Source: Aradus depressus (lineage: Eukaryota > Arthropoda > Insecta > Hemiptera > Aradidae). From it: a DNA stretch of 64,000 nucleotides. The stretch lies in contig OY759217.1 in the NCBI GenBank assembly GCA_963662175.1, positions 6,016,562-6,080,561 of the forward strand, written 5' to 3'. The position numbers were made by a program, and so were the translations under genes. Positions 3,772 to 19,415 of this stretch are shown one piece after another. How positions within the stretch are numbered: the first letter of the stretch is position 1; the number at the start of each line of letters is the position of its first letter. The notes below the pieces were generated by a model that did no database searches, had not been told where the DNA came from, and worked only from the letters and a program-made list of their open reading frames with translations.

Positions 3772-4190
3772 AGTAGGGTCAAATGGCCGGACCTGGGCCA
3801 GTTAAAGGGGCGCTATGCTGGTCTAGTAGTGCCCAGGCTTAAATGGACCAAAGTAGGTCAGGTTTTAAAGGGTGGGTCACGCTTGGACTCGTGGTTTTAA
3901 AGTCCAGTGGACTGGTGTGTCAGATGTGTGTCAAACAGATGTAAACCTATCATTTATTTATTTTGATATCTCAAAAAAATCGCTAGCGTCTGAGAGGTCA
4001 TTCAACCGTATATGTAAACAGACGACGAGAGGTCATCCAACCTTCGGTGAGTGTGTCTTACAGATGTAATTCATATATTTATTTTGCTATCTCAGTGATT
4101 CGAAAAAAAAAATCGCTAGCGTCTGCCAGGTCATTGAACCTTGCATATAAACACACGAGATTATACCACCACCTCATTCAACTTTCAGTG
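3772..4190 (+). repeat. Polinton left terminal inverted repeat
   Basis: Starts AGTAGGGTCAAATGGCC and matches the reverse complement of 19007-19415. I found only two substitutions and a 10-bp segment near 4146-4155 that is absent on the right. Inside is an imperfect direct repeat with a 133-bp spacing (about 3938-4030 and 4063-4160), each copy carrying the palindrome CGCTAGCG (3981-3988, 4114-4121) followed by a GGTCATT.AACC motif. A 65-codon open frame at 3872-4069 occurs identically in the other repeat and is probably not a gene. Confidence 0.95.
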
Positions 4191-4514
4191 TGTATGTGAA
4201 AACTTATCATTTTGGTATCCTACAGAAATTTTTTCGAAAAACGGTGAGCGAAAAATGTATTATTGAGAAATTAACACAGTCAACGAACTTTCAGTTTAGA
4301 AAGTATGAGAGTGGTTTATCTGGTGAAAGTAGGAGCAAAGATGACCACCTTCGTGAGAGCCTAATTTGCATACCGGTCCAGGACCGTGTCCTCCTTGCTC
4401 CTCATTTTTCGAAAGTGGAATTTTTTGAATATGTTGATTTTTCAAAATTTGATGCTTCTTCCGAGAATATAAAAAGACAGGAATCTAGCGGGTCCCATCA
4501 TTATCTAGCCAAAC
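4191..4514. other. Left subterminal region
   Basis: Non-repeated DNA between the left inverted repeat and the first gene. An overlapping 116-codon open frame (4190-4540) has no recognisable features and runs over the promoter and start of the next gene, so I do not call it. The proximal promoter lies at 4468-4502. Confidence 0.5.
4468..4502 (+). promoter_or_regulatory. Core promoter of first spliced gene
   Basis: TATAAAAA at 4468-4475, followed 32 nt later by an initiator-like TCATTA (A at 4500). The ATG at 4515 would be the first in the mRNA, with a leader of about 14 nt. Confidence 0.55.
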
Positions 4515-4936
4515 ATGGACACAGAAACTCAGGAGAGTGACTTGAACGCTTTAGTACAAAAACTAAATGCATCTAAGGCGGAATTCATACCGATAAATGA
4601 ATTAATAATAGATGAGAAATATTCGATTCTTGCAATGAAAAGAATAAATACAATTTACGGACCCAGTATAATCGCGACTTTCATTGAAGGAGATGTCGAC
4701 GAGCCCAGCGACAGCTTGAAAAGCATTTTTTTGCCGAAGCGCTATACCGAAATGTTTTCCGATGAAGAACTACTTCAAGCTTCAGGTTACTTTTTAAAAA
4801 AGAATAATAATTTAAAAATAAAGTCACTTTTTTAACAAAAACTAAAAATTTTTTTTTTTTTTTTACAGGCAATTTGAAATTGGCGTACAAAGGCCGAAGA
4901 ATCAATAAGGAGCATTTATTTGAATTCTCAGTGTAA
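4515..4936 (+). CDS. Small spliced Polinton protein, paralogue 1 (unknown function)
   Basis: Two exons, 4515-4785 and 4869-4936, with an 83-bp GT-AG intron whose acceptor follows a long T tract (TTTTACAG). The product is about 112 aa. Without splicing, the frame runs into AT-rich intron sequence and stops at 4835. The second exon supplies a conserved ending (LAYKGR ... FEFSV) that matches the end of the next gene, which proves the intron by comparison. Shared motifs with that paralogue are EKY.IL.MK, YG.SI.AT, FLPKRYT.MF and YKGR. I recognise this type from arthropod mobile elements but know no function. The short beta-rich layout could suit a small nucleic-acid-binding (OB-like) fold; that is speculation. 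The start is supported by the TATA box upstream. Confidence 0.75.
4786..4868 (+). other. Intron of paralogue 1 (83 bp, phase 1)
   Basis: Donor CAG|GTTACT, acceptor TTTTACAG|GC after about 17 T. It splits a glycine codon after its first base, exactly as in the neighbouring paralogue. Confidence 0.75.
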
Positions 4937-5091
4937 TCTAGTGTATTTTTGAAAAATATATAATTTGTAATCAAGTGTTGACTTTATTTACACAACCAAA
5001 AATGATGAAATCTCACCCCCCCTCAAACACAAATTTGTGCCAACCTACTTTCTAAAAGAAACTTGTATGAATTTGAAATGTCAAATCCGAG

Positions 5092-5129
5092 TATATAAAC
5101 CCTCTGAGATCCCCGAATTGGTATCAGTC
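5092..5129 (+). promoter_or_regulatory. Core promoter of second spliced gene
   Basis: TATATAAA at 5092-5099 and a consensus arthropod initiator TCAGTC at 5124-5129 (A at 5126, 34 nt downstream). The first ATG after it is at 5159, giving a leader of about 33 nt and pointing to the short 5' coding exon. Confidence 0.65.
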
Positions 5130-5158
5130 TTTCGTCTGAGAACATCTCATCTCCAATA

Positions 5159-5703
5159 ATGAACACTTCTGCTTCTAGCGCTTCCAAGGTATATTCTAAA
5201 ATTCTCTTAGACATTTTTATACTCTAAAAAAATTCGATAATAATTTCATGATGGCACAAATTTTTCAACATCTTGTAGATTTCATCTCTTGTAAGAAAAC
5301 TAAACACCAAAATGCGTGGTGAAGTCGTATCTATGACCGAATTAACAGTAGGTGAAAAATATAGAATTCTTACCATGAAAAAAATTGAGACAAGTTATGG
5401 TCTTAGTATAATGGCAACGGTGATTGAAGATGAGGACCGTAATGCACAAAGATGGAATGATGGTCAGAAAACGGTTTTTTTACCAAAAAGATATACTAAA
5501 ATGTTTACCGATGATGATTTAAAAGATGCAGAAGGTAATAAAAAAAAAGCTTAAGCCGTAATTTTTGACTTAGATAATTTTTTTAAAATTATTAAGCATC
5601 TCATTTATTTTTTTTTTAATTTTAATTTTTTGTAGGTAAGCTAAATATGGTGTATAAAGGTCGTGGATCAAGACAGGAGTATCTCTTAGAGTTTTCAATG
5701 TAG
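5159..5703 (+). CDS. Small spliced Polinton protein, paralogue 2 (unknown function)
   Basis: Three exons, 5159-5188, 5279-5534 and 5636-5703, with GT-AG introns of 90 and 101 bp. The product is about 117 aa. Exon 1 encodes only ten residues rich in Ser and Ala. The start of exon 2, before the ATG at 5312, matches the paralogue's N-terminus (LV.KLN), so the gene does not begin at 5312. The second intron sits in a glycine codon, phase 1, at the same point as in paralogue 1. Shared core motifs are EKY.IL.MK, YG.SI.AT, FLPKRYT.MF and YKGR, with the ending LLEFSM. AATAAA lies at 5735-5740. Both genes therefore arose by duplication of a spliced ancestor. Function is unknown; expression early in the element's cycle is plausible but not shown. 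Confidence 0.75.
5189..5278 (+). other. Intron 1 of paralogue 2 (90 bp, phase 0)
   Basis: Donor AAG|GTATAT, acceptor CTTGTAG|AT. Joining keeps the frame into the body of the gene and restores the N-terminal similarity to paralogue 1, which has no intron at this place. Confidence 0.65.
5535..5635 (+). other. Intron 2 of paralogue 2 (101 bp, phase 1)
   Basis: Donor AAG|GTAATA, acceptor TTTTTTGTAG|GT after a T-rich tract. Same position and phase as the single intron of paralogue 1. Confidence 0.75.
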
Positions 5704-5837
5704 AGAATTCAATGTAATACCGATATTTTGAAATAATAAAAATCTGATTAAAAACGTATTGATATTGATTTATAAACACCTTAAGGGAAGGGGAAAAAAT
5801 AAATAAAATAATTTGAAAAGATTTTATTTTTTTATAT

Positions 5838-6785
5838 TCACACTAATTGAGATAAATTGACCCAACTCTTTTCTGACAGTCCGAACCACTTCACATATAT
5901 ACGATTCCCTTTTCGTCGAAGAACTTTTTCAATGAGATAAACACCAGGATCCTTTACAATCTGTAATTCTTCTTTATAAAATGCGCCAAATATGTCTTGA
6001 TTATTCGCATCTTGTAAAAGGTATGTGATGGGGTTTGTAAATTGCACCTTGACAACTTTGAAGATCTCAGGTGAGAATTGAGCAAGATAGCCTTTGGCAA
6101 ATGCATTGCGTAATTTTGATATGCGGACATAATCCCCCTCCTTGAATTTAGGTTTGGTAGTGGTAGCCGGGACTGAATAAACAGTGGCAATTAGCTCATT
6201 TTGAAGCTTCTTATTAGCGACAACCTCAGACGGAGTGGCTTGAATTGTACGGTGCTTTGTATTATTATATCTTGAAAGCAGAGCAGGTAGCAAGTCGACA
6301 TATTTATGATTTCCATTCAAGGTGAACATTTTCCACATATGTCCTTTTAATGTTCTATTGAATCGTTCAGCAATCGAAGCCTTTTTTCCAGAGTATGTAG
6401 AATAGTGGTGAATATTATTTTTTTTCATAAGAGTCTGGAAGTTAGTATTGTAGAATTCACGTCCTTCATCTGTAAGCAATAATTGAGGTATACGTTTACT
6501 CTCGAGAAATATAGTCTCTAGCGCTTTTGTAACTTCTGGTCCTGTCTTTCGCTTCAATGGTATTGCCCAGGCATATTTCGAGAAGCCATCGATTACGGTC
6601 AATAAATATTTAAAGCCTTTATTGACTCGCCAATATGGCACCATCTCGACTAAATCTGCCTCCCACAAATCGTCCACTCCTTTTAAAAGCACTTTACGTC
6701 GAGGATAATTAACACGAGCTGGTTTATGGAGTTCTCTAACGACAACTTCTCTTGGTGTGTAAGGTTTTGAAAGTATATTCCCCAT
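5838..6785 (-). CDS. INT: Polinton integrase (RVE family, chromodomain-like tail)
   Basis: A 315-aa DDE integrase that would insert the element DNA into the host genome, making 6-bp duplications. The catalytic triad is visible: D44 (WEADLVEM), D106 (LLTDEGREF) and E140 (KASIAERFNRTLK), with 33 residues between the last two. The middle (about 36-190) is the RNase H-like core. The C-terminal 34 residues (YLIEKVL, YVKWFG, SW) look like a chromodomain, known in Polinton and Ty3-type integrases for chromatin targeting. A classic HHCC zinc finger is not obvious at the N-terminus. It is the last gene of the leftward block, 46 bp after the fibre-like gene, with a possible polyadenylation signal (AATAAA on the minus strand, 5823-5828) just past the stop. 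The frame is intact. Confidence 0.95.
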   Translation of the reverse strand: MGNILSKPYTPREVVVRELHKPARVNYPRRKVLLKGVDDLWEADLVEMVPYWRVNKGFKYLLTVIDGFSKYAWAIPLKRKTGPEVTKALETIFLESKRIPQLLLTDEGREFYNTNFQTLMKKNNIHHYSTYSGKKASIAERFNRTLKGHMWKMFTLNGNHKYVDLLPALLSRYNNTKHRTIQATPSEVVANKKLQNELIATVYSVPATTTKPKFKEGDYVRISKLRNAFAKGYLAQFSPEIFKVVKVQFTNPITYLLQDANNQDIFGAFYKEELQIVKDPGVYLIEKVLRRKGNRIYVKWFGLSEKSWVNLSQLV

Positions 6786-6831
6786 GACAAACTCTATCAG
6801 ACTAATACTAAATCAATTGTCTCACTTTAAT

Positions 6832-7398
6832 TTAAGCATCATGGTTCTGCTTTTTTAGCATATATTTCGACAGTTCTCGTTGAAGATGCTGAAGAGTTAC
6901 ATATCCAGAATTATCAATTTTCTTGACCAAGTAAGCCAATTCTCTTTGAAGATAATTCAGTGTGACTACATCATTAGAATCTATGGGAGGGCTGACATTT
7001 ACTAGTCTTTTCTTACTCCCATTGATATATGCTCCAGGCCAATTTTTGAGATCAGTGTAGAACCTTGCCGATCTGTCCACATATCCTTTCGTAGCTGCAT
7101 CAGAGGGGTCCGATGGATCCTCTATATGTATTAGCCTTTTAGCATTAAAGTCAATTTTGCTTCCTGACTGAGAAAAATGTGAAATTCGAGAATCGACATA
7201 ATTTCTGGAAGCAGCATCTGATCCCTCCAATCCTTCTCCTAAATTGATTATTCGCCTATGGTTGACATCGAGAACTCCTCCAGCTTCAACCTGTCTGAAT
7301 CGGTCCTCTCCTTTTAAAGCTTGAACTGTATTGTATAATTTTTGCTGATTGCGGTAATACCGCTTACCAACATGCCGTCCGAACTTGTCAATGGTCAT
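6832..7398 (-). CDS. Fibre-like protein with phage-tail-fibre-type repeats
   Basis: 188 aa. Three successive segments of about 30 residues (roughly 42-72, 80-109 and 122-153) follow one plan: a strand ending in R-[IL]-[IV], a Pro/Gly-rich turn, then DAA..YVD (twice exact: SDAASRNYVD, SDAATKGYVD; the third has degraded to NDVVTLNYLQ). The DAA-x2-YVD signature is well known from phage and large-virus tail-fibre shaft repeats, where it forms trimeric beta structures and helices. The N-terminus is basic and may attach to the capsid. The C-terminus carries LQREL repeated twice (LNYLQREL, LQHLQREL), suggesting a coiled coil. I infer a virion-surface attachment or spike role. A promoter with a perfect TCAGTT initiator precedes it. 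Confidence 0.65.
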   Translation of the reverse strand: MTIDKFGRHVGKRYYRNQQKLYNTVQALKGEDRFRQVEAGGVLDVNHRRIINLGEGLEGSDAASRNYVDSRISHFSQSGSKIDFNAKRLIHIEDPSDPSDAATKGYVDRSARFYTDLKNWPGAYINGSKKRLVNVSPPIDSNDVVTLNYLQRELAYLVKKIDNSGYVTLQHLQRELSKYMLKKQNHDA

Positions 7399-7403
7399 TT
7401 TAG

Positions 7404-7436
7404 AACTGAAACCCCTCAGGTGAAATAGACTCTATA
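7404..7436 (-). promoter_or_regulatory. Core promoter of fibre-like gene
   Basis: On the minus strand, TATAGAG (7436-7430) is followed by the exact initiator TCAGTT (7409-7404, A at 7407), 29 nt apart. The TATA box lies inside the last codons of the upstream RING gene. The predicted leader is about 8 nt. Confidence 0.6.
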
Positions 7437-7622
7437 CACACCAATTTTTGAACTTCTACAATATGGACAAAAAATACAAAAAACAGAACAGTCCATACAG
7501 GTAAAATGACCACATGGTAATATGACCGTATCTACAATGGCATCGAAACACACCTTACAACGAAGATCTACCAAATATTCCTCTGAATTTTCTGATTCCT
7601 CCTCATCTTCACTAGAGCTCAT
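7416..7622 (-). CDS. Small RING-finger protein, IAP-type RING
   Basis: 68 aa: an acidic Ser/Glu-rich N-terminus (1-15), then a C3HC4 RING with ligands C22, C25, C37, H39, C42, C45, C52 and C55. The PCGH, CPYCR and terminal YRVYF motifs place it nearest the C-terminal RING of inhibitor-of-apoptosis proteins. No BIR domain is present. RING proteins of this kind are E3 ubiquitin ligases; I infer possible modulation of host apoptosis or other ubiquitin-dependent pathways. The gene starts 2 bp after the stop of the DUF8207-like gene (TAA-TC-ATG), so it might be translated by reinitiation or from its own unseen promoter. Ligand spacing is intact. Confidence 0.8.
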   Translation of the reverse strand: MSSSEDEEESENSEEYLVDLRCKVCFDAIVDTVILPCGHFTCMDCSVFCIFCPYCRSSKIGVYRVYFT

Positions 7623-7624
7623 GA

Positions 7625-8644
7625 TTAATATATAATATTTGCTTCTCTCAATTCTTCCAATATTGACGCGATTTCATTCGAATGAGGTCCACCTCCTGCT
7701 GCTTCGCTAGCATAGAGCAAGCTTAACCTCGTACAGAGTTCATTGGGATCGTCCCAGCGCTCATATATAGGTCTTGTACAATTCATCCATAAGCCCGAGC
7801 CAGAAAAATGAGATTTTTTTGAACGGGTATGATATTGTCTGGTAGTAGGAGTAAATAATTTTGCAATTATATTTTTATACTTGAAACTTTTATTACCACT
7901 CAAACTTTTAGCTTCACTGAAATGTCTTTTATGAGCATTTGTAACCGTCAGTAGTTCCTTATATATGGCTAAATCCTCATTTTTGTATGTCATAGGTTCT
8001 TTTAAAAACAAAAGTTCATAGAGTCCAGGTGTACCTTCATAAAATTTGTCTTTAATTTCTAAATCATTGTGATCCACTCGAACGCTAGCGTCACCTAACG
8101 TTAACCCACCACTGGGTAGAAAGCGAAGTCCATAGCGAGTGTCAAAGTCCTTTGTATCTCCACTAAGAAATTTTCTAATATATGGGCGCAAAAATGGACC
8201 AATATTGGATGATTCAATCATTCTTTCTACTGCATCTCTGCCTAGCGCAGTCTGAGACAAAAGTTGTGCTTCTTCTACAGGTGTAATAGGAGGTGATGAA
8301 CTTTCAAAGACTTCTTCTTCAAAAGGGACTTCTTCCCTCCTAGGTGTAGTGAATGAAGGAGTATAGAGTTGAGTTTTTGGTTTTCCACTGATTGGTGTGA
8401 TGATTTTTTCTTCTTGCGGATATATTTCAGATTTCTCTATGTTTGGGAATGGTGGAGTCTTGATTATCGATTTGGTAGGTGCTTGTTTCAGAGTTTCCGT
8501 TATTTGTAGCAGTGGTTTTGTAACTGGTTCGAATGTTTTCTCTAGTGACTCATGAGTCTCTAGAGCCCCCTTCTTGAAAGATTTCAACTTTTTTCTCAAA
8601 CCTTTAGAGGTCTTGATAATATCTCGTACTACTGAACGTTTCAT
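7625..8644 (-). CDS. Conserved Polinton protein, DUF8207-like
   Basis: 339 aa. The N-terminus (1-30) is strongly basic (RKKLKSFKKG). A Pro/Ser/Glu-rich linker (about 55-125) follows, then a conserved core: YGLRF, LGDASV, the TPGLYELL box and a YKELL..TNA segment (about 165-240). Near the C-terminus are a GSG hinge, a DPNEL.TRL.LL motif, an AAGGG stretch and a final NEIASILEELREANII helix. I know this combination from arthropod mobile-element proteins annotated as DUF8207; its function is not established. The position between ATPase and RING genes and the basic N-terminus would suit a virion DNA-associated or scaffold protein, which is only inference. Confidence 0.7.
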   Translation of the reverse strand: MKRSVVRDIIKTSKGLRKKLKSFKKGALETHESLEKTFEPVTKPLLQITETLKQAPTKSIIKTPPFPNIEKSEIYPQEEKIITPISGKPKTQLYTPSFTTPRREEVPFEEEVFESSSPPITPVEEAQLLSQTALGRDAVERMIESSNIGPFLRPYIRKFLSGDTKDFDTRYGLRFLPSGGLTLGDASVRVDHNDLEIKDKFYEGTPGLYELLFLKEPMTYKNEDLAIYKELLTVTNAHKRHFSEAKSLSGNKSFKYKNIIAKLFTPTTRQYHTRSKKSHFSGSGLWMNCTRPIYERWDDPNELCTRLSLLYASEAAGGGPHSNEIASILEELREANIIY

Positions 8645-8648
8645 TTTA

Positions 8649-8682
8649 AACTGAGCTGCTGCGGTACACTTACATCAATATA
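8649..8682 (-). promoter_or_regulatory. Core promoter of DUF8207-like gene
   Basis: On the minus strand, TATATTG (8682-8676) lies in the final codons of the ATPase gene, and the exact initiator TCAGTT (8654-8649, A at 8652) follows 30 nt later. The ATG is only about 7 nt further on. Confidence 0.65.
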
Positions 8683-9353
8683 AAGGTGTCAAAGCCCTGT
8701 CGGTACCTCCCCTTGTCTGCCTCTCGAGTTTTATCAAGGACAAAGAACCCATAGGGGTCACTGTCCCAACATAGTGCACACATCTTTTGAAACATACCAA
8801 ATGTAACATCTGTCGAACTAACGTGATCCTGATAAATATGTTTTAAATTTAACAAATTTTGTCTGAAAAGTATTAAAAAATTTGCATTGTCTCTAATTAA
8901 GTGCTTTGGTATATGCGCATATGTCTGCCCAATGTAAATAGGGAATATAGACTTGTGTCGTCCCATACTAAAATACTTTCTTATTATATTATGGTTATCG
9001 AGGCTAATATCATCAAAAATAAAAGCAGAATTAGGTTTTGCATCTTCCAGCTGTATCACACTTTCGGAATCATCAAAAGTGTAATATCCTATTTCGGGAA
9101 CCGTGTCCATTACCTTTTTTAAATAGGTGTATTTCGCCTGTGATAAAGATCGAGAGTAAATGTAGAGATTTTCGAAACAAAGTCCATTTTCATCAAGAAG
9201 GAGGCTAATGACCAAATTGGTTTTCCCCGATCCTGTAGCTCCACAAACAATGATTAAAGGGTTTGGTGGTAAAAGTCTTATTGTTTCATCTTTTTCCTGG
9301 TGAGGAAGAAGGTCAACAACTTTCAGTTGTAAAGGTTGAGGCTCCAAATGCAT
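8670..9353 (-). CDS. ATP: DNA packaging ATPase (FtsK/HerA-A32-like)
   Basis: 227 aa from the preferred start. Walker A GATGSGKT at residues 38-45 and Walker B AFIFDD at 110-115, followed by an IGQTYAHIP sensor-like segment. This is the usual Polinton/adintovirus packaging ATPase, which drives genome entry into the capsid. The frame is open upstream to an ATG at 9416, but a TATATATA box and TCATTT initiator on this strand place transcription start near 9363, inside that extension, so I take the ATG at 9353. It heads the leftward block and is divergent from the PLA2-like gene across 69 bp. Confidence 0.9.
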   Translation of the reverse strand: MHLEPQPLQLKVVDLLPHQEKDETIRLLPPNPLIIVCGATGSGKTNLVISLLLDENGLCFENLYIYSRSLSQAKYTYLKKVMDTVPEIGYYTFDDSESVIQLEDAKPNSAFIFDDISLDNHNIIRKYFSMGRHKSIFPIYIGQTYAHIPKHLIRDNANFLILFRQNLLNLKHIYQDHVSSTDVTFGMFQKMCALCWDSDPYGFFVLDKTREADKGRYRQGFDTFILM

Positions 9354-9359
9354 TTCGGT

Positions 9360-9422
9360 AAATGATACCTTTAGTGAAACCGCTGTATATATAAATTGAG
9401 AGCATGATCCTTTCATTTCAGT
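9360..9422. promoter_or_regulatory. Bidirectional promoter sharing one palindromic TATA box
   Basis: TATATATA at 9386-9393 reads the same on both strands. Leftward, TCATTT (9365-9360, A at 9363) lies 30 nt away. Rightward, TCATTT (9413-9418, A at 9415) lies 29 nt away, with TCAGT overlapping it at 9418-9422. Both flanking ATGs (9353 on minus, 9423 on plus) fall within about 10 nt of the predicted starts, so the leaders would be very short. Confidence 0.65.
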
Positions 9423-10160
9423 ATGAAACGAAAGATAGGAGGCAGTGTAGTAAACGCTCTAATCAACAAGCTACCATTTGAAGCACACATTCCAGGATAT
9501 AATTATTGTGGACCCGGCACCAAGTTACAAGATCGCTTAGCTCGAGGTGATACGGGTATTAATCCTTTAGACGAAGCCTGTCGTGAACACGATATTTCCT
9601 ATTCAAAAACTAATAATTTATCTCAGAGACACGCAGCAGACAGAATCTTAGCAGATAAAGCTTGGGAGAGAGTCAGATCTAAGGACGCAAAGTGGGGGGA
9701 GAAGGCAGCTGCTTGGACTATAACAAATACCATGAAGGCTAAAGTCAAAATGGGGTCTGGACTTCGAGGATCCTTTGGAAAACTTATAAAAGCTGCACGA
9801 GTAGGTCGTCATTTACCTATTGATAGGGCTTCTGCTTTATCATTGAAAAAAGCAAAACGGTATTTGCAAAAATGGAAAATAACAAAAACGCCGAGGATGC
9901 TCCCTTTGCCTAAAACCGGTGGGGTATTACCATTTCTCGTACCACTATTTGCAGGATTATCTGCTCTCGGTAGCTTAGCAGGTGGTGCGTCAGCTATAGC
10001 AAAAACTGTAAGCGATGTCCAAAATGCAAAGGCTAAATTGGAAGAGATGAAAAGACATAATAGGACAATTGAAGGACAAAAAATAGGTCAAGGACTTTAC
10101 GTAAGACCATACAGAAACGGATACGGATTATACGTGAGACCATATAAAAATCAGATGTGA
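9423..10160 (+). CDS. PLA2-domain virion protein
   Basis: 245 aa. Residues about 22-75 form a parvovirus-type phospholipase A2 module: calcium loop YCGPG (28-32), then D50-E-A-C and the catalytic pair H56-D57 with Y60. Such domains in virion proteins breach endosomal membranes during entry. A basic middle region is followed by a hydrophobic Gly/Ala-rich segment (about 168-193: LPFLVPLFAGL, SLAGGASAIA), a short helix, and two copies of a GLYVRPY motif at the C-terminus. The hydrophobic part could be membrane-active, as in adenovirus cement or core proteins; that is inference. The reading frame continues past the TGA directly into protease sequence. Confidence 0.85.
   Translation: MKRKIGGSVVNALINKLPFEAHIPGYNYCGPGTKLQDRLARGDTGINPLDEACREHDISYSKTNNLSQRHAADRILADKAWERVRSKDAKWGEKAAAWTITNTMKAKVKMGSGLRGSFGKLIKAARVGRHLPIDRASALSLKKAKRYLQKWKITKTPRMLPLPKTGGVLPFLVPLFAGLSALGSLAGGASAIAKTVSDVQNAKAKLEEMKRHNRTIEGQKIGQGLYVRPYRNGYGLYVRPYKNQM
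10143..10150 (+). promoter_or_regulatory. Possible TATA box before protease gene
   Basis: TATAAAAA lies within the last codons of the PLA2-like gene. A start about 30 nt downstream would fall near 10173, but no good initiator is visible there. Between it and the first in-frame protease ATG are two out-of-frame ATGs, one forming ATG-TAG at about 10183. Confidence 0.35.
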
Positions 10161-10235
10161 CTTCCAAATAGAGCTCTTACAAATGTAGATCTTGAAAAAT
10201 ATGCTAAAAACTTGTGTCATTTCAGAGGTGTCTTT

Positions 10236-10514
10236 ATGAAGGACACCTTACCGAGGACACCAAAAAAATATGAATCGGGCATTGTGAACCTTAATAGAGT
10301 CAGTGAACCCGGCTCACATTGGGTCTGCTATGTAAAGCGTGACAATAAAATAAAGTATTTCGACTCGTATGGTAATCTACCACCTCCACTCGAAATACTC
10401 AAATACCTGAAAGGATGCTCAATTGAATACAATCGAAACCGGTATCAGGATTGGAACACTCCATATTGTGGACACTTATGTATTCAGTTCCTTTATATTG
10501 AAAACTTGTGTTAG
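10236..10514 (+). CDS. PRO: Adenain-like cysteine protease
   Basis: Cleaves capsid precursors during virion maturation (family role, by homology to adenovirus protease). From the ATG at 10236 it is 92 aa and contains the full active site: H28 (GSHWV), D43 (YFDSYGN), Q71 and C78 (PYCGHLC), with the Q-to-C spacing of seven as in adenain. However, protease-like sequence (LPNRALTN ... FRGVFM) is open from 10161, right after the TGA of the PLA2 gene, with no ATG of its own. The true product could start at 10236, arise by UGA readthrough, or use a non-ATG start (TTG at 10212). The stop TAG at 10512-10514 is followed closely by the minor capsid gene. Confidence 0.85.
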   Translation: MKDTLPRTPKKYESGIVNLNRVSEPGSHWVCYVKRDNKIKYFDSYGNLPPPLEILKYLKGCSIEYNRNRYQDWNTPYCGHLCIQFLYIENLC

Positions 10515-10528
10515 TCTTAGATGCAGTC
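10494..10528 (+). promoter_or_regulatory. Core promoter of minor capsid gene
   Basis: TATATTG at 10494-10500, inside the end of the protease gene, with an initiator-like GCAGTC 31 nt downstream (A at 10525). The capsid ATG at 10529 would be only 4 nt from the start site. Confidence 0.45.
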
Positions 10529-11242
10529 ATGAGTTATACCTTTACCCTTACGGGCACTGAGAACGTATTAAGTGCAGACATTTTTCCTACAATAGACCTA
10601 TCAAATGGAGAGTACTCGATTGGGCTTTTAGGTTTTACAACATATAATTCTATTCCCAACATTATTGATGGTGAGAATGATATGTTTTATTTTGGTGATG
10701 AAAAAATTAAAATACCGATGGGGACATATGAGTTGGAAGCACTTGGGGATTATTTACAAGAACAGATGATGTTTAGAAGAAAAGGCGATCATGTTATAAT
10801 CCGAGCTAATAATAATACATTAAAATCAGAATTACGGTGTACAAAAACTGTATATTTTAATAGAAAAAATTCTATTGGACCCTTATTGGGATGGGATGAC
10901 AGCTTGGATGAAGATAAGCGTACCTTACACCCCGGAGATGGCTATCATACCTCACCAGGGATCGTAAACATGGTTAAAGTCAATACAATTGCTATTGAAT
11001 GTAATATAGTTTACGGTGCATATCGAAATGGAAAACCGGTTCACACATTGTATGAATTCTATCCAACTGTCGAGGCAGGGTACAAAATTGTCGAAACACC
11101 ATCACCCATTGTATATTTAGGAGTTAGCACAAAATCCGTTGACAACATTACATTACGGATAGTAGACCAAGACGGTCATCCAATCAACTTTAGAAACGAA
11201 ACTATAACGATACACCTACATATAAAGAAGAATGGCGATTGA
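10529..11242 (+). CDS. Minor capsid (penton-like) protein
   Basis: 237 aa from ATG 10529. The upstream in-frame GTG at 10508 is not needed. The sequence is beta-rich without membrane segments: MSYTFTLTG at the start, IDLSNGEYSIGLLGF, an internal FNRKNSIGPLLGW, a GPVHTLYEF-like stretch (GKPVHTLYEF), and a final IVDQDG.PINFRNE.ITI.L.IKK. This pattern, immediately upstream of the double-jelly-roll capsid gene, is that of the single-jelly-roll penton protein of Polintons, which would occupy the icosahedral vertices. Its last 11 bp overlap the next small ORF. Confidence 0.85.
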   Translation: MSYTFTLTGTENVLSADIFPTIDLSNGEYSIGLLGFTTYNSIPNIIDGENDMFYFGDEKIKIPMGTYELEALGDYLQEQMMFRRKGDHVIIRANNNTLKSELRCTKTVYFNRKNSIGPLLGWDDSLDEDKRTLHPGDGYHTSPGIVNMVKVNTIAIECNIVYGAYRNGKPVHTLYEFYPTVEAGYKIVETPSPIVYLGVSTKSVDNITLRIVDQDGHPINFRNETITIHLHIKKNGD

Positions 11243-11372
11243 CTTTAGACCTCGGTATATAAGTATTCGACCACATCCAAGACCCATTAGTACGAGACCG
11301 TACATGAGACACTTGACACCAGGCAACATTCGATTTTTGAAAAGTTTAGGCTTGAAAGTGAAACGACAATGA
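11232..11372 (+). CDS. Small basic ORF between the two capsid genes
   Basis: 46 codons, overlapping the minor capsid gene by 11 bp at the front. Its TGA overlaps the ATG of the major capsid gene (ATGA). The product is strongly basic (Arg/Lys about one quarter), Pro-rich in the first half (RPRYISIRPHPRPIS) and ends in a predicted helix (IRFLKSLGLKVKR). I believe similar short basic ORFs lie at this place in other Polintons. A DNA-condensing core peptide like adenovirus pX would fit, but that is inference. The tight overlaps on both sides argue for a real gene, coupled translationally or made by leaky scanning. Confidence 0.55.
   Translation: MAIDFRPRYISIRPHPRPISTRPYMRHLTPGNIRFLKSLGLKVKRQ
11256..11290 (+). 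promoter_or_regulatory. Candidate promoter of major capsid gene
   Basis: TATATAAG at 11256-11263 with an initiator-like CCATTA 30 nt on (A at 11286). Both lie within the small basic ORF. A transcript from here would lack that ORF's first ATG and reach the capsid ATG at 11369 after about 83 nt. Confidence 0.4.
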
Positions 11373-12586
11373 ATGACATTTTAGATATTACAGAGGACGT
11401 TCGGTTTGATGATAGTATCACTCAGCTACAGTTCCACACTTACAACCCATTTAATTCTACAAATTTAAAGAATTCTGATGAGATTCGAATCCCTATTCAC
11501 CAGCAAGATTTGTATATATTACCATGTGCTAGTTATCTTTATTTGGAAGGCTCTATTCAGAAGGAGGGTGCTGATAAAAGAATGACTACATCGAGTGCAA
11601 AATTGTCAAATAATGCCTTTGCATTTATGTTTGATGAAATTCGCTATGAATTGAATGGAGTGGAAATTGATAAAGTCCGAAATCCAGGAATTGTGAGTAC
11701 TCTAAAAGGGTATGTCTCTTTATCACCTAACCAAGTGAGTGGGTTAGGCAATGCAGGATGGATGATGCCGAAGAAAGATGGAGCTATTTCAATAGATAAA
11801 GACGGTCATTTTAATGTATGTCTCCCCCTCAGCACTCTTATTGGTTTCCTCGAAACTTTCAAAAAAGTGATAATCAATTCAAAGCATGAACTGTGTCTTA
11901 TCCGTGCAAAGAGCGACGCTAATTCGATTTTGGAAGACAAGGTACAACTTACACTAAACAAGGTAAATTGGAGAGTCCCTCATATTAAAGTATCTGATGA
12001 ACACCGACTACGACTATTGAGAATATTAGACAGAGATCAGACACTCACTATCCCTTTCCGCTCATGGGAGTTGTCGGAATACCCTGCCTTACCGGAAAAC
12101 ACACAAAATACATGGAGTGTCAAGACTAGTTCAGCTCTAGAAAAACCCCGATATATAATCGTAGCCTTTCAGACAGACAGAGTCGACAATAAGTTAAAAG
12201 ATACCAGTCAATTTGACGCTTGTAACTTGTCCAATGTTAAACTATTTTTGAATAGTGAGATGTTCCCATACGATGATTTAAACCTTGATTTCAATAAGGG
12301 TCGATATGCTGTTCTCTATGATATGTACCAAAGATTTCAAATGAGCTACTATGCTAAGGATCATAGTGAACCCCTACTGTCGAGAAAGGACTTTGGTGAA
12401 ATCGCCCCCATGATAGTTCTTGATGTATCACGTCAGGAAGACACATTGAAGGTAGCTACGGTCGACATTCGTTTAGATCTTCATGCAACCCAACCGTTTC
12501 CACCTCATACTCGAGCTTACTGCCTTTTAATTCACGATAAATTAATTGAATTGAATCCTCTTAGTGGTCTTGTAAGGAAGCTATAA
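11369..12586 (+). CDS. MCP: Major capsid protein, double jelly-roll
   Basis: 405 aa. Conserved elements of the Polinton double-jelly-roll capsid protein are visible: an N-terminal FDDSITQLQFHTYNPF stretch, a LYILPCASYLYLEG strand, the FAFMFDEIRYELNGVEID block at about 85-103, a NPGI.STLKGYVS segment, and a second barrel beginning near residue 205 with SWELSEYPALP. The C-terminal half keeps a CNLSNVKLFLNSE..PYDDLNLDF strand pair. The protein would form the trimeric pseudo-hexameric capsomers. The frame is intact, so the element retains a potentially functional capsid gene. The stop TAA is embedded in the TATA box of the following gene. Confidence 0.9.
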   Translation: MNDILDITEDVRFDDSITQLQFHTYNPFNSTNLKNSDEIRIPIHQQDLYILPCASYLYLEGSIQKEGADKRMTTSSAKLSNNAFAFMFDEIRYELNGVEIDKVRNPGIVSTLKGYVSLSPNQVSGLGNAGWMMPKKDGAISIDKDGHFNVCLPLSTLIGFLETFKKVIINSKHELCLIRAKSDANSILEDKVQLTLNKVNWRVPHIKVSDEHRLRLLRILDRDQTLTIPFRSWELSEYPALPENTQNTWSVKTSSALEKPRYIIVAFQTDRVDNKLKDTSQFDACNLSNVKLFLNSEMFPYDDLNLDFNKGRYAVLYDMYQRFQMSYYAKDHSEPLLSRKDFGEIAPMIVLDVSRQEDTLKVATVDIRLDLHATQPFPPHTRAYCLLIHDKLIELNPLSGLVRKL

Positions 12587-12617
12587 AATGAGTGTGTGTA
12601 AGATGAGGATCATCATT
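12582..12617 (+). promoter_or_regulatory. Core promoter of the 222-aa gene, overlapping the capsid stop
   Basis: TATAAAA at 12582-12588 contains the major capsid TAA stop (12584-12586). TCATCATTA lies about 30-33 nt downstream (A at 12612 or 12615). The next ATG is 12637. Confidence 0.55.
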
Positions 12618-12636
12618 AGATTTCTAACCCTCAAAC

Positions 12637-13305
12637 ATGGAACACCAGTTCGCGATTGTGGATTTTCAAGGTTTTCAAGGGGAAGGTGGCTTTATTGTGA
12701 AGGAGTTGACAGTTCTCACTCACAGTCAGTCACTCCACTGGTTTTTTCTCCCTCCTCAAAATGTTGATGAATCTGATAGTCGTGTGAATCTATGGGTTAA
12801 AAAACACATTCACAATATTCCATGGTGCTATGGAGATACAGAATATTCACGTCTGGAAGAACTCTTATGTACTTCAACTGCTTCATGTAAATTTATTTGG
12901 GCGAAAGGACTAGAAAAATGTACATTTCTTGAAAATATTGTTAAAAAACCAGTTTATGATCTGCTCGACTATGGGTGTCCGAATTTGAAAAAGTTACCCC
13001 CACATGAGACTACCTGTCATTTTCATGGAGGAACCTCTTATACTTGTTCACTTAATCAAGCCTTCAAGTTGGAGGAGTGGATAAGTAAACACCCATCCAA
13101 GACAGATTTGTACAATGAAGAGGTTCGCCAAAAAACCTTTCGTAAATCTAATAAAGTGTTGGCATTTCATGGCTTTGTAAGACATTTGAATAATACTGCA
13201 ATGTGTGTATATTGCAAGCTAAAATGTGATATAGATCAGACGGTATGCCCACACATGTACCATAAAAGACACAGCCCCCGATGTTACTGGTTTAGTCAGT
13301 GCTAG
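12637..13305 (+). CDS. Conserved mobile-element protein of unknown function, 222 aa
   Basis: Opens with FAIVDFQGF and FIVKELTVL. A region with H.HNIPWCYGD, then FIWAKGLEK and a LLDYGCPNLKKLP segment, follows. The C-terminal 35 residues are Cys/His-rich (CVYCK, CPHMYHKRH), probably metal binding. I have seen this D.QGF ... KG.EK arrangement in arthropod mobile elements but know no tested function. The alternation of D, E, D and H is faintly like a DEDD exonuclease, but the first motif lacks the usual acidic partner, so I make no functional call. It ends 1 bp before the next ATG. Confidence 0.65.
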   Translation: MEHQFAIVDFQGFQGEGGFIVKELTVLTHSQSLHWFFLPPQNVDESDSRVNLWVKKHIHNIPWCYGDTEYSRLEELLCTSTASCKFIWAKGLEKCTFLENIVKKPVYDLLDYGCPNLKKLPPHETTCHFHGGTSYTCSLNQAFKLEEWISKHPSKTDLYNEEVRQKTFRKSNKVLAFHGFVRHLNNTAMCVYCKLKCDIDQTVCPHMYHKRHSPRCYWFSQC

Positions 13306-13306
13306 A

Positions 13307-13567
13307 ATGGATCAAGCTTTGGAAAAACTTTCTCAAACTAATATCTGGAATATGGATCCGGTACATCTTCAAAACTTACCACCTGCATTACTGCTTCATC
13401 TCTATGACTATGCAATTGAATATTTATGGGACAACCTACCTGAAGAGTGGCGTGAGGATCCAAGATTCCAATTGTGTCGTCGATGCAACCATCACTTCAA
13501 TACATCTCATGATCAAATCGATGGTCCACCACCGATGAAGAAAAATTGTACTTATTGTGTAAAATAA
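13307..13567 (+). CDS. Small zinc-ribbon protein, 86 aa
   Basis: Starts 1 bp after the TAG of the preceding gene (TAG-A-ATG), so the two are probably translated as a pair. The N-terminal half is helical and Leu/Pro-rich (LQNLPPALLLHLYDYAIEYLW). The C-terminal third has C57-x2-C60 and C81-x2-C84, with H62, H63 and H68 between, a zinc-ribbon layout. AATAAA lies at 13575-13580, just past the stop. Function is unknown; it could be a partner or regulator of the 222-aa protein. A second open frame in another register over the same bases (13299-13538) lacks any motif and is a shadow. Confidence 0.65.
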   Translation: MDQALEKLSQTNIWNMDPVHLQNLPPALLLHLYDYAIEYLWDNLPEEWREDPRFQLCRRCNHHFNTSHDQIDGPPPMKKNCTYCVK

Positions 13568-13675
13568 TGTTGATAATAAATTTAAATTCAACCATATTTT
13601 TTTTCTTTTTTTTAAAAAACCCTCAAAAGTTGTAAAAATAATAGGAAATAAGAAAATAAACAAGTATGATTATAA

Positions 13676-14224
13676 TCATTTATTCATAAATAATGCATAC
13701 ATTTCATTCCAGTCTACAGTGTTTAAATTCACTATAGACTCTTCAGTTGATGTTGGTAATGAAAAAAATTCAAAGCATTTTGATATTACTGATAGTAAAA
13801 GTTTTAAAGAATAGTCTATTTTCTCACAAGACTTGAGCATAAATAACACTTCACTTTTATTGAGCTTGATTTCCGGCTGAGACGACACCGACATGTAAGG
13901 AGAAGGACTATTCAGACACATTGTGACCCATGGGTATGAATTTGATATACTCACACTTCGATTTCTTCCAGTGAGTCCAAATTTGAATACTATGTTGCGT
14001 ATTCGAAGTGAGTCTTGGAGAGGTCTTTTTCTTCCTTTGGGGTTGATGTAGTTTTGAATAGGTCCTATGTTGGTGGAGAGTCCTGTCCAATCTGCCGTGT
14101 CCAAATAAATTGATACCTTCTTGTGGCAAAATACCACTACTGGTGACTGGTTGAGAAGTCCTACCTTGATGACCTTGGTCTTGGACTTGTTGAGAGCAAA
14201 CTCTGTCACTAGATACAACTCCAT
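13676..14224 (-). CDS. Unknown 182-aa protein on the opposite strand
   Basis: Convergent with the zinc-ribbon gene and divergent from the polymerase gene, with about 180 bp to the polymerase ATG. The sequence has a beta-rich N-terminal half (KTKVIKVGLLNQSPVVVF, VSIYLDTADWTGL, RIRNIVFKFG) and a helical C-terminal half (LKSCEKIDYSLKLLLSVISK). It has no transmembrane segment or clear catalytic motif. AATAAA on this strand overlaps the last codons (MNK then TGA). I recognise the general pattern from arthropod Polintons without a known function; the beta half could bind nucleic acid. That it is a gene is inferred from length and context. Confidence 0.6.
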   Translation of the reverse strand: MELYLVTEFALNKSKTKVIKVGLLNQSPVVVFCHKKVSIYLDTADWTGLSTNIGPIQNYINPKGRKRPLQDSLRIRNIVFKFGLTGRNRSVSISNSYPWVTMCLNSPSPYMSVSSQPEIKLNKSEVLFMLKSCEKIDYSLKLLLSVISKCFEFFSLPTSTEESIVNLNTVDWNEMYALFMNK

Positions 14225-14405
14225 TGCGACAACTGGTCTCTCTACATTTTTTCACATCATATCATCTTCTTACCCCCACCTAGTTCCCCCCTCTCTGGTC
14301 TTTTTAAAAACCTGTTTTCATGAGCGGGTTCACAATCTTTTCTCACAATTGTTTTTGTTTTATTTTGATTATATATAGGCAGACTCCTCCTTGGACTATT
14401 ACAAC
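14225..14405. promoter_or_regulatory. Divergent intergenic region before polymerase gene
   Basis: On the plus strand TATATATA (14370-14377) precedes the polymerase ATG at 14406 by 36 nt. The expected start falls in CTATTAC, a weak initiator. No convincing initiator was found for the minus-strand gene. Confidence 0.45.
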
Positions 14406-17400
14406 ATGTTCAAGTGTACAAAGTGTGACACCATTTTTCCATCTTGGAAAAAACGTAATGTTCATCAGTTCAACTGTAAGAGAAATATCGACGAGATATT
14501 GGATGTAGAACCACCAAGGAAAAAAATATTTTTATGTTCATCTTGCGGAGGACGGTTTGAAAACGATTATCATGGACAACGACATGAATCAGTCTGTCAT
14601 GGGGAATATTCATCCTCAAAGGAACCGACCAAGGACGCATTATTGGCTCTGGTGCCTTCTGATAATATTGTACAATATGAAAGTGCCTTTGCTAGTCGAT
14701 TGGAATCCTATTTTATTCGCTCAAACAAATGCAATGATTTGACGTGTTTCCTACTGGATGTGAAACCAACATTAATACACAAAGTATCCAACATACTACA
14801 AATGAAATCTGCAATAAAAATTAATTTGATGGTTGAATGTTTATTTGAAAATGCTCTTGGTGAGAGGACAGATCGAGCCTTTAAGACTATGAATAAGCCA
14901 GTTTTTCGAGCAACAAATCTTGAAAAATTCTTTGACAATGCATTTGAAAAAATACACTCGGAGGTGGAAAATAGTGCATTGAAAGGAAGTGGGTGGAAAA
15001 TATTAGCCGTAGACGGAATTCGTCTACGGGTGAATAGATATGATCCACTACGTGCTTCTACATATATACCATTACCAGCTAGTCTTGAAAATAAAAAGGC
15101 ATGTGTAAATGTACAAAATAATGATGAGAAATGTTTTGCATATTCAATCTTAGCAAAATTCGTGACATCGCATTCTTATCGACCACAGGAATATACTGAT
15201 TTATTCAGTTTATATGATTTTTCATGTGTTTCGTTTCCAGTCGCTCTAACGGATATTTCTAAATTTGAAAAGGTCAACAATATGTCTATAAATGTATTTG
15301 GAATTGATGAAAACGAGAAAATATACCCCCTCAAGGTTGCAGCAGAAGAAAAATCAGATCATCGGGACATCCTCCTTTTGGACAATGAAAAAAAACAACA
15401 CTACGTCTACATAAAAAACTTTAATCGGTTGATTAGTCGTCAATTACGAAAATCTTCTCTGCGAAAATTTTACATCTGTAAAAGATGCTTCATAACTTTT
15501 GAAGAAAGAAGAGGCGGATCTGATAAGCTGGAGATGCATAAAATCTATTGCAAAGATCAGAAGACTGTACGAGTTGAATTACCATCTGATCCGATAATGA
15601 CATTTACAAATGTTGAGCGTCATCACAGAGTTCCCTACGTTATTTATGCCGATTTTGAATCTATCTTGGAACCTATTGCTGGATGTCGTCCATCATCTGA
15701 GTCATCATTTACTACTCGTATTCAAGAACATATTCCAATGTCGTTTTGTACGTATGTGAAAAGTTCTTCTGGTCTTCCACCAATCTCTACTGCTCCGTAT
15801 TTGTATAGAGGACCTGATGCAGCCAGAGTTTTTATAGAACACATCATCGAATTGAGTAAAGCTATATCAGCTGTCTACAATGGTAACCCTGTGGATATTA
15901 ATATGAATTTTGATCAAGAAACCCAGTGGGATTTAGCAACTACATGTTACCTCTGTGATAATGAATTCACAGAGTCGAATTGGAAAGTACGTGATCATTG
16001 TCATCTCACTGGGGATTACAGAGGTGCAGCATGCAATGGTTGTAATTTGAAATGTTGTATTCCTAAATTTATTCCAATTATTTTTCACAATCTCACAAAC
16101 TATGATTCGAAATTTATAATTAGACAGCTGAGTAATACAAAATGTGGGAGAGTTACAATTATACCTCACACTCAGGAAAAGTTTATATCATTTTCAGTTA
16201 AGATTGACAACATTTGGATGAGGTTTATTGATTCTTTTCGTTTTATGGCCTCTAGCTTGGATCAGCTTGCTCGAAATTTACCATCTGATGCATTTTTGGA
16301 AACATCACGTTTCTTTCCGACTGAGCATATGTCTCTCATGACCCGAAAAGGTGTGTTTCCGTATGATTATGTAGATTCTATGAAGAAACTGGATGAAACT
16401 CAATTACCACCAAAGGAAGCATTTTTCAATTCGTTAACACAATCGCATATTGATGAGGAAGATTATGCACATGCTCAGACTGTCTGGAAAACATTTCAAT
16501 GTACTACGTTGGGTAGTTATAGTGATATCTATTTAAAATCAGATGTTTTAATTTTATCGGATACGTTTGAATCATTTCGAAATATGACTATGAAAAACTA
16601 TGGAGTTGATGCGGCCCACTACTATACGACACCAGGACTCTCCTTTGATGCTATGTTACGATATACAAAGACTAAGCTAACACTATTACAGGATTATGAT
16701 ATGATAATGTTTTTCGAGAAAGGTATAAGAGGGGGGATATGTCAAGCATCACATCGATATGCTACAGCAAACAATAAATACATGAAAAATTATGATCCAC
16801 AAAAAGAATCATCATACATCACTTATCTTGATGCTAACAATCTATATGGATATGCCATGAGCAAATATTTACCATATGGCGATTTTCAATGGGTGGAAAG
16901 ACCGGAAGAGGTTGACATTCTTAATTTACGAGAAGACGATGATACAGGCTATGTATTTGAGGTGGACGTGAAGTACGCGACAAAACTTCACGAGATGCAT
17001 GACGATTTACCATTTTTGGCCGAGACGATTCCTCCCCCAGGTGGCAAGGTTAAAAAATTGATTCCTCATTTAAATTCACGCGAACGATATGTGGTACACT
17101 ATGTAGCTCTGAAACAGGCTCTACAGCATGGACTCGAGATTGAAAAGATCCATAGAGCAATCAGTTTCAAGCAATCACCCTGGCTGCGGTCCTATATAGA
17201 TCTTAATACTCAACTTAGACAAAACGCACAAAATGATTTCGAAAAAGATTTCTTCAAACTCATGAATAACTCCATATTCGGGAAGACGATGGAAAATGTA
17301 CGAAATCGACAGAATATACAGCTAGTCAAGACTGCAAGACAAATGATGAAACTAGTAGTAAAAGCTAATTTTCTTGAGAGAATTATCTACGACGAGGAGC

Positions 17401-18029: not shown

Positions 18030-18433
18030 TTCACTTTCCCCCCTCTAACTCGAGAATTATCATCTTGTGAATTACCTACTGAGTGGACCCCGAATCACTA
18101 GAAGAATTTCAAGATTGTATAAAAATGATATGCCGATACATATGATGAAGAAAATGTGTAAAGTTCATTCTGACCCCTAAATTTCCTCTGTCATCGGAGG
18201 TCCACATTTCATCCCACCTCTCTTATCCACCCCACAACTTCCTCAAATGTGCTTCCGCTTTGACGTAGCGAGGAGGCTTAATTGATTTATATGATCAAGA
18301 ACCAAGAGAAGCACTATTTTTTTCTTTTTTTTTTTTTTTTTTAATTTTATGTCTAATTTTTTTTTTCAGATCTGTCCGCATGATCGAGGGAGCTGAGAAT
18401 AATTCACTAATTTTTTTCTGTTTATTGTTCCAG
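18030..18433. other. Post-polymerase region with probable upstream intron
   Basis: A TATAAAAA box at 18118-18125 could start the right-end gene. Two T-rich acceptor-like sites follow: TTTTTTCAG at 18361-18369 and TTGTTCCAG ending at 18433, the latter preceded by a branch-like CACTAAT. A short first exon between about 18140 and 18160 is possible but could not be fixed. No independent ORF is supported. Confidence 0.4.
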
Positions 18434-18886: not shown

Positions 18887-19006
18887 TTTTATAAATAAAT
18901 TTTTTATTTTTTTCTATATTTTTTTTCATTGACTTCCTACCTCACTGAATATTATAATATGCAAATCTTGGTGTGGTCTGGACGAAGGTCGACGAGATTG
19001 ATGACT

Positions 19007-19415
19007 CACTGAAGGTTGAATGAGGTGGTGGTATAATCTCGTGCAAGGTTCAATGACCTGTCAGACGCTAGCGATTTTTTTTTTCGAATCACTGAGATAG
19101 CAAAATAAATATATGAATTACATCTGTAAGACACACTCACCGAAGGTTGGATGACCTCTCGTCGTCTGTTTACATATACGGTTGAATGACCTCTCAGACG
19201 CTAGCGATTTTTTTGAGATATCAAAATAAATAAATGATAGGTTTACATCTGTTTGACACACATCTGACACACCAGTCCACTGGACTTTAAAACCACGAGT
19301 CCAAGCGTGACCCACCCTTTAAAACCTGACCTACTTTGGTCCATTTAAGCCTGGGCACTACTAGACCAGCATAGCGCCCCTTTAACTGGCCCAGGTCCGG
19401 CCATTTGACCCTACT
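19007..19415 (-). repeat. Polinton right terminal inverted repeat
   Basis: Reverse complement of 3772-4190 apart from two substitutions and the 10 bp absent here. CGCTAGCG palindromes at 19066-19073 and 19199-19206 mirror the left copies exactly (342 and 209 bp from the end). Confidence 0.95.

What the first reader, a model, noticed from the sequence alone, without database searches (positions are those of the whole stretch)
4468..14405. Nearly gene-by-gene arthropod TATA plus initiator promoters, packed into preceding gene ends
Eight genes show a TATA-like box 29-34 nt before a TCAGT/TCATT-type initiator: 4468/4500, 5092/5126, 7436/7407, 8682/8652, 9393/9363, 9386/9415, 10494/10525 and 12582/12612. 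Three have exact TCAGTT or TCAGTC. Several boxes lie in the last codons of the upstream gene and predicted leaders are mostly 4-25 nt. This suggests single-gene transcription units driven by host RNA polymerase II rather than operon-like messages.
Basis: partly seen in the sequence, partly recalled or inferred. Interest (0 to 1): 0.8.

Follow-up and report, generated by a model that had tools for sequence, protein, structure and literature searches.

The report
Host-style promoters inside a Polinton
A virus-like jumping DNA element appears to give many of its genes their own small start signal of the kind its host uses, tucked into the ends of neighbouring genes, which suggests that it borrows the host's gene-reading machinery.

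Summary
All eight TATA/initiator pairs are at the stated coordinates, in a 15.6-kb Polinton at 3772-19415 (374-nt identical inverted repeats; 6-bp target duplication). AT-rich chance does not explain it. Over 61 gene starts in the window and six other family representatives of the same genome, 21 score >=12 of 13, against 301 of 6,217 control windows; 200 Markov shuffles gave at most 8. The signal is specific for spacing and strand, and TCAG is the top 4-mer 26-34 nt after TATAWAW without being asked for. Host histone genes show the same type (6 of 21 regions versus 115 of 1,962 control windows). Giant-virus TCTA and baculovirus TAAG motifs are not enriched.

Extensions: a TATA word lies inside a small ORF before the capsid gene in 7 of 7 families, and ATPase and PLA2 share one TATA in opposite directions in the window. 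Correction: 'single-gene units' is too strong. Poly(A) signals are missing at most internal gene ends, so nested mRNAs with shared 3' ends are likelier; the protease may be made by recoding. Integrase, PolB and g13676 lack a clear site. No transcript data exist here.

The parts
3772..4145 (+). left terminal inverted repeat of the Polinton (similarity continues to about 4193)
   Evidence: 374 nt, 100% complementary to 19042-19415; flanked by 6-bp duplication ATTCTC
19042..19415 (-). right terminal inverted repeat
4468..4503 (+). promoter of small gene 4515: TATAAAA, 32 nt, TCATTA (A+1 4500); leader 15 nt
   Evidence: score 12
5092..5129 (+). promoter of small gene 5159: TATATAA, 34 nt (or TATAAAC 32 nt), TCAGTC (A+1 5126); leader 33 nt
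   Evidence: score 13
7404..7436 (-). promoter of g6832: weak TATAGAG, 29 nt, TCAGTT (A+1 7407); leader 9 nt
   Evidence: score 11; no TATA at this place in L003, TCAGTT kept in L017
8649..8684 (-). promoter of g7625: TATATT inside the ATPase's last codons, 30 nt, TCAGTT (A+1 8652); leader 8 nt
   Evidence: (score 12); TATA kept in 27% of synonymous resamplings
9360..9393 (-). promoter of ATPase: shared TATATATA, 30 nt, TCATTT (A+1 9363); start codon 9353, leader 10 nt
9386..9423 (+). promoter of PLA2: the same TATATATAAATT read the other way, 30-34 nt, TTCAGT (A+1 9420), leader 3 nt; TATA + T[CT]AGT kept in 6 of 6 families
10494..10528 (+). promoter of g10529: TATATT in the protease's last codons, 31 nt, GCAGTC (A+1 10525); leader 4 nt; TATA in 6 of 6 families, CAGT in 5 of 6
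   Evidence: (score 11); codons alone keep TATA in 69% of resamplings
11232..11372 (+). small basic ORF 'pX' (46 aa), overlapping the end of g10529 and the MCP start
   Evidence: name recalled, not tested
   Evidence: score >=11 in 7 of 7 families (21% of control windows); at a fixed place (-130 to -96) TATAWA in 4 of 7 (5% background)
12582..12618 (+). promoter of BIR gene: TATAAAA over the MCP stop codon, 33 nt, TCATTA (A+1 12615); leader 22 nt
   Evidence: score 12; strong in L002 (13), absent in L017 (9)
5838..6785 (-). integrase (rve); no convincing TATA-initiator in the window; AATAAA 10 nt after its stop
8670..9353 (-). packaging ATPase (Pox_A32-like)
9423..10160 (+). PLA2-domain protein, stop TGA followed by CTT
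10161..10514 (+). protease ORF with no ATG at its conserved N-terminal part; no own promoter found; protease identity recalled, no Pfam match
11369..12586 (+). major capsid protein (double jelly roll)
   Evidence: E 2e-118
13575..13580 (+). AATAAA at the end of the rightward block
14406..18029 (+). family B DNA polymerase; promoter uncertain

Best explanation
The element is a recently amplified Polinton that is transcribed in the nucleus by host RNA polymerase II. Many cistrons (nine in the window, counting MCP; six of them with strict matches, while g6832, g10529 and MCP rest on weaker ones) have their own focused core promoter: TBP/TFIID on a TATA box 29-34 nt before a TCA(G/T)T-like initiator, with short leaders (3-33 nt; MCP 83). 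Boxes sit in the last codons of upstream genes or inside an overlapping ORF; one TATA serves ATPase and PLA2 in opposite directions. Transcripts of a block probably run on to a shared poly(A) site, so mRNAs differ in their 5' ends and share 3' ends. Shown here: the sequences, enrichment, spacing and strand specificity, recurrence across families, likeness to host histone promoters, distribution of poly(A) signals. Inferred: actual start sites, Pol II use, message ends.
For: Enrichment at gene starts, spacing and strand specificity, TCAG found without being asked for at 26-34 nt after TATAWAW, 16 of 138 TATA clusters versus 4.1 expected. At PLA2, TATA + T[CT]AGT in 6 of 6 families, while bins between box and initiator are 16-37% identical in an ungapped comparison. 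TCAGT within 60 nt upstream of 19 of 61 starts versus 6% control; TATAWA 21 of 61 versus 10%. Host histone upstream regions: 6 of 21 score >=12, both printed H4 regions 13, versus 115 of 1,962 control windows of the same loci. 34 of 40 scored places in the genome, the window's own included, are identical over the 161-nt ATPase/PLA2 promoter stretch, so recently amplified. Poly(A) signals mainly at block ends.
Against: No transcript has been mapped. 8 of 14 window starts and 40 of 61 in all score below 12; integrase, PolB, g13676 and protease lack a clear site in the window. TATA is missing at some orthologues (g6832 in L003, BIR in L017, g7625 in L006). In g10529 the TATA could be coding constraint (69%). 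The comparison families come from one genome and are related, so they are not independent draws, and control windows overlap; gene starts were chosen by hand from ORF lists and some are wrong. Leaders of 3-10 nt are unusually short for scanning ribosomes (general knowledge). The host is not identified; that it is an arthropod is inferred from the insect names among the capsid relatives.
Confidence: 0.8

Rival explanations
1. The CAGT-like words are 3' splice sites just before start codons: one or two distant promoters make long pre-mRNAs with spliced leaders, as in adenovirus late genes.
For: 18 of 24 predicted sites that I listed have AG at the place; adenoviruses use this (recalled); the element's small genes look spliced (by eye).
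Against: 6 of 24 sites read CAT with no AG; pyrimidine content in the 15 nt before is 0.51 on average (0.27-0.73) against 0.50 in the element, versus 0.93, 0.73 and 0.67 at three putative acceptors; a TATA box at a preferred distance is unexplained.
Confidence: 0.08
2. Chance: an element of about 63% A+T offers TATA-like and TCA-like words everywhere.
For: Loose matches (score >=10) occur in 85% and >=11 in 36% of control windows.
Against: Strict matches 21 of 61 versus 4.8%, shuffles at most 8; 0 of 49 antisense without the divergent pair; orthologous recurrence.
Confidence: 0.04
3. Virophage-like transcription by a co-infecting giant virus (TCTA late motif) or a viral polymerase.
For: Mavirus-like endogenous elements carry TCTA motifs (PMC8547959, passages seen).
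Against: TCTA 17 of 61 upstream regions versus 24% control; TAAG 9 of 61 versus 16%; ATNAC 8 of 61 versus 23%; no RNA polymerase domain among the 12 window ORFs given to Pfam.
Confidence: 0.02
4. Operon-like: one promoter per block and polycistronic translation; internal boxes are decayed or coding by-products.
For: Few poly(A) signals between genes; overlapping ORFs g10529-pX-MCP; coding constraint can keep some TATA words.
Against: Internal genes of L002 carry strong pairs (TATAAATA + TCAGT/TCATT before ATPase, integrase and BIR), and pairs recur across families.
Confidence: 0.08

Closest known systems
White spot syndrome virus early promoters (PMC1550435; abstract and the section on start sites read)
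   Same: TATA(a/t)A plus (a/c)TCANT initiator, described there as like Drosophila Pol II core promoters
   Different: Leaders there 20-85 nt and box-start distance 20-30; here mostly 3-15 nt and 29-34. There most major structural genes lack a functional TATA and show ATNAC; here structural genes have TATA pairs and ATNAC is not enriched
Baculovirus early promoters (PMC8789824; passages seen)
   Same: TATA a mean 32 nt before the start and arthropod CAGT initiator, host Pol II
   Different: Baculovirus late genes switch to a viral polymerase at TAAG; TAAG is not enriched here
Host histone gene promoters (same genome)
   Same: H4: TATATAT or TATAAAT, 32-33 nt, TCAGTC/TCAGTT; six best regions 31-33 nt
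   Different: Leaders 19-29 nt; Polinton leaders are mostly shorter and boxes overlap coding sequence
Mavirus-type virophages (PMC8547959; passages seen)
   Same: related gene set (recalled); motifs in the upstream 100 nt
   Different: TCTA motif of a giant virus there; host-type TATA-initiator here

Membership tests
arthropod Pol II TATA-initiator core promoter | TATAWAW box | tested here: met
   full match in 5 of 8 claimed sites, weaker in 7436, 8682, 10494
arthropod Pol II TATA-initiator core promoter | TCAKTY-like initiator at about 30 nt | tested here: met
arthropod Pol II TATA-initiator core promoter | strand-specific placement upstream of genes | tested here: met
   12 of 49 sense, 0 of 49 antisense without the divergent pair; 21 and 9 of 61 with it
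arthropod Pol II TATA-initiator core promoter | capped 5' end at the initiator A | not testable with these tools
   no RNA data
Polinton/Maverick | long terminal inverted repeats and 6-bp target duplication | tested here: met
Polinton/Maverick | PolB and integrase | tested here: met
   PF03175 4e-32, PF00665 4e-14
Polinton/Maverick | DJR capsid and packaging ATPase | tested here: met
   PF21738 2e-118, PF04665 2e-5
Polinton/Maverick | adenovirus-type protease | tested here: inconclusive
   no Pfam match; identity recalled from the look of the sequence only
virophage (mavirus) promoter class | TCTA motif upstream of genes | tested here: not met
   17 of 61 versus 24% control
baculovirus late promoter class | TAAG initiator | tested here: not met
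   9 of 61 versus 16% control

The most novel reading that the evidence does not exclude
Arthropod Polintons run a complete, self-sufficient nuclear expression programme: each cistron or cistron group has a host-type promoter hidden in neighbouring coding sequence, MCP is driven from inside an overlapping small ORF, ATPase and PLA2 share one bidirectional TATA, messages are 3'-coterminal, and the protease is made only by recoding of the PLA2 message (UGA readthrough in some families, -1 frameshifting in others). This would separate them functionally from virophages that depend on a giant virus.
Probability: 0.4. Interest if true: 0.7.

Novelty: new member of a known kind. Interest (0 to 1): 0.52.

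Why it matters
How Polintons express their virus-like genes in animals seems little documented. My searches of the held library (Polinton, Maverick or adintovirus with promoter, TATA, initiator, transcription start or promoter motif) listed no study of their core promoters, judged by titles and abstract starts; some listings were capped (15 of 17, 15 of 39, 12 of 1,043 and 12 of 95 papers shown), subscription papers are not held, and the adintovirus founding paper was not held. Host-type promoters at capsid and packaging genes would mean that the element can be read without a helper virus wherever Pol II has access. They predict exact, testable start sites and help to find true start codons in Polintons.

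Tried and rejected
Relatives with DNA context from elsewhere: two scans of viral contigs with the capsid found none, so all comparison is within one genome. The protein search found 1,544 capsid relatives among 3,976 candidates (best 120 listed; the organism names given there are insects), but gives no DNA.

Alignment A2 mixed ATPase and capsid proteins by my mistake and was not used. Broken copies L007 and L019 were printed but left out of the 61 starts. Of the 32 Polinton loci fetched, starts came from L002, L003, L006, L013, L014, L017 and the flank pieces L027, L028, L029, L032; the other 12 of the 20 main loci were judged too alike to one of these, or broken, and the remaining flank pieces gave no start that I used. 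PLA2 of L017 is not in the 61 because its reading frame is interrupted; the window's pX start was entered one base off (11231 for 11232).

RNA folding downstream of the PLA2 stop (five loci) gave no common structure: z-scores 1.6, -1.1, 0.8, -0.5, -2.2. TGACT[AT] occurs at 8 of 101 ORF ends overall, A AAA AAC at 2 of 101, so the readthrough reading is weaker than the frameshift one. PolB: TATATATA at 14371 is 35 nt before the start codon but no initiator fits; left open.
Full report
What is there. Positions 3772-19415 are a Polinton: inverted repeats of 374 nt at 100%, a 6-bp flanking duplication ATTCTC, integrase, packaging ATPase, PLA2-domain protein, double-jelly-roll capsid, BIR protein and PolB. 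A 161-nt stretch over the ATPase/PLA2 promoter is identical at 34 of the 40 places scored, the window's own included, and 99% at the other 6 (124 candidates), so the element spread recently.

The observation. The eight boxes and initiators are real and correctly placed. A strict scan of both strands gives only gene-start hits; a loose one adds five elsewhere. A graded score (TATAWAW plus TCAKTY, 28-34 nt) reaches 12 of 13 at 6 of 14 window gene starts and 21 of 61 starts over seven families, against 301 of 6,217 control windows from the same DNA; 200 first-order Markov shuffles averaged 2.3 and never passed 8. Control windows overlap and families are related, so the nominal Fisher value (8e-13) overstates the case, but other controls agree: 2-6 hits in seven spacing bins away from 28-34, with 16 and 9 in the two bins just above (33-39 shares two spacings with the main bin, and repeated TATATATA can be read in several registers); 12 sense versus 0 antisense of 49 without the divergent pair, 21 versus 9 of 61 with it. 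Without asking for an initiator, TCAG is the most over-represented 4-mer 26-34 nt after TATAWAW (16 of 138 versus 4.1 expected).

Comparison between families. A Pfam capsid search scored 126 of 457 candidate places, which fall into several families. Capsids of five representatives are 47-57% identical to the window's; L003 is a near sister (about 89%). At PLA2 all six families with that gene in place keep TATATATA or TATAAATA and, 30-33 nt after the TATAAAT register, T[CT]AGT 3-7 nt before the start codon, while bins between are 16-37% identical in an ungapped comparison. The same TATA read backwards could serve the ATPase in the window, in L003 (a place that the count of 61 missed) and, weakly (score 10), in L017; L006 and probably L013 have a second box. 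At g10529 a TATA in the last codons of the protease recurs in 6 of 6 families and CAGT in 5 of 6 (L006 has TTTAATC), but there the codons alone would keep TATA in 69% of resamplings; for the ATPase-end and MCP-end boxes the figure is 27%. L002, with another gene order, carries TATAAATA plus TCAGT/TCATT at ATPase, integrase and BIR, and TATATAAT plus CCAGTC at g7625. Losses are as real: BIR in L017, g7625 in L006 and g6832 in L003 have no TATA at the place.

The capsid gene is preceded by a small basic ORF (46-65 codons, 7 of 7 families) that overlaps its start; TATA[AT] lies inside that ORF in 7 of 7, TATAWA in 6 of 7 (L017 has TATAATG). With a scored initiator 29-33 nt on, the pair reaches >=11 in 7 of 7 where 21% of control windows do; only L013 and L014 reach 12, the initiators of L002 and L014 are poor, and at one fixed place (-130 to -96) TATAWA is found in 4 of 7 (5% background) because its distance from the start codon varies. 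I read it as the capsid promoter, with moderate confidence.

Message ends. In the window AATAAA/ATTAAA is missing at 7 of 8 internal gene ends (g6832 has ATTAAA one base after its stop; variant TATAAA hexamers lie at the PLA2 and MCP ends) and present after the integrase, the ORF ending at 13567 and at g13676; PolB has neither within 120 nt. In six other families 32 of 34 ends lack it within 60 nt; the two with it are g7625 in L013 and L014, the last recognised gene of its strand there. In those two families the capsid gene has no recognised gene behind it and AATAAA at +97 and +144; where BIR follows (window, L003, L006, L017) the first signal within 400 nt is one at +379 in L006; BIR in L002 has none within 400 nt, and whether it is terminal is unknown. 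So start sites look gene-specific and end sites shared.

Missing promoters. The protease's conserved N-terminal residues lie upstream of its first ATG. In the window, L003, L006 and L017 they follow the PLA2 stop in the same frame, separated by TGA CTT/CTA; in L013 and L014 they are in the -1 frame and PLA2 ends with A_AAA_AAC right before the stop. That would make a PLA2-protease product by recoding and explain why no promoter is needed. It is a prediction: no common downstream structure was found. L002 has neither arrangement. Integrase has only a weak TTAAATT/TTAGT pair shared by the window and L027 (by eye).

Host match and rivals. Of 21 histone upstream regions printed (some with doubtful start codons), 6 score >=12, with spacings 31-33 nt and leaders 19-29 nt, among them both H4 regions; 115 of 1,962 control windows of the same loci do. 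Splice acceptors are unlikely: 6 of 24 listed sites have no AG, and there is no pyrimidine tract on average. Giant-virus TCTA, baculovirus TAAG and the WSSV late motif ATNAC are not enriched.

Known kind. The promoter itself is the canonical arthropod type, described for WSSV early genes (PMC1550435) and baculovirus early genes (PMC8789824, passages). What is unusual is its use at structural genes of a Polinton, the packing into coding sequence and the very short leaders. In related virophage-like elements the motif is that of a giant virus (PMC8547959, passages). In the paper on Drosophila-associated adintoviruses the word 'promoter' does not occur (PMC8363768).

Noticed in passing
window 10158-10190; L003 2947-, L006 2932-, L017 2959-; L013 2889-2898, L014 2879-2888: PLA2-protease junction looks recoded: in-frame TGA CTT/CTA in some families, canonical -1 slippery A_AAA_AAC right before the PLA2 stop in two others.
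   Followed up: partly
contig C14 of the genome (16.4 Mb): 47 of the 126 scored capsid copies lie on C14, which is 2.3% of the genome; 17 of the 47 hold stops, against 7 of the 79 elsewhere. Looks like a non-recombining (Y/W/B-like) or repeat-rich chromosome.
   Followed up: no
window 4515-4930 and 5159-5700: Two small paralogous genes (...LPKRYTxMFxD...) that look spliced (GT-AG by eye), each with its own TATA-initiator; a relative in L027 (64%).
   Followed up: partly
window 11232-11372: Small basic ORF (mostly M[AG]IDF...LTPxNxRFLxxLG; different start in L002) overlapping the end of g10529 and the MCP start, found in 7 of 7 families.
   Followed up: partly
window 21505-64000: 72-nt satellite in tandem copies; copies were searched to 25000 and base skew stays constant to the end of the window.
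   Followed up: no
window 4146-4181: TATAAAC + 30 nt + TCATTC inside the left inverted-repeat region, away from any gene start; could be chance or a terminal transcript start.
   Followed up: no
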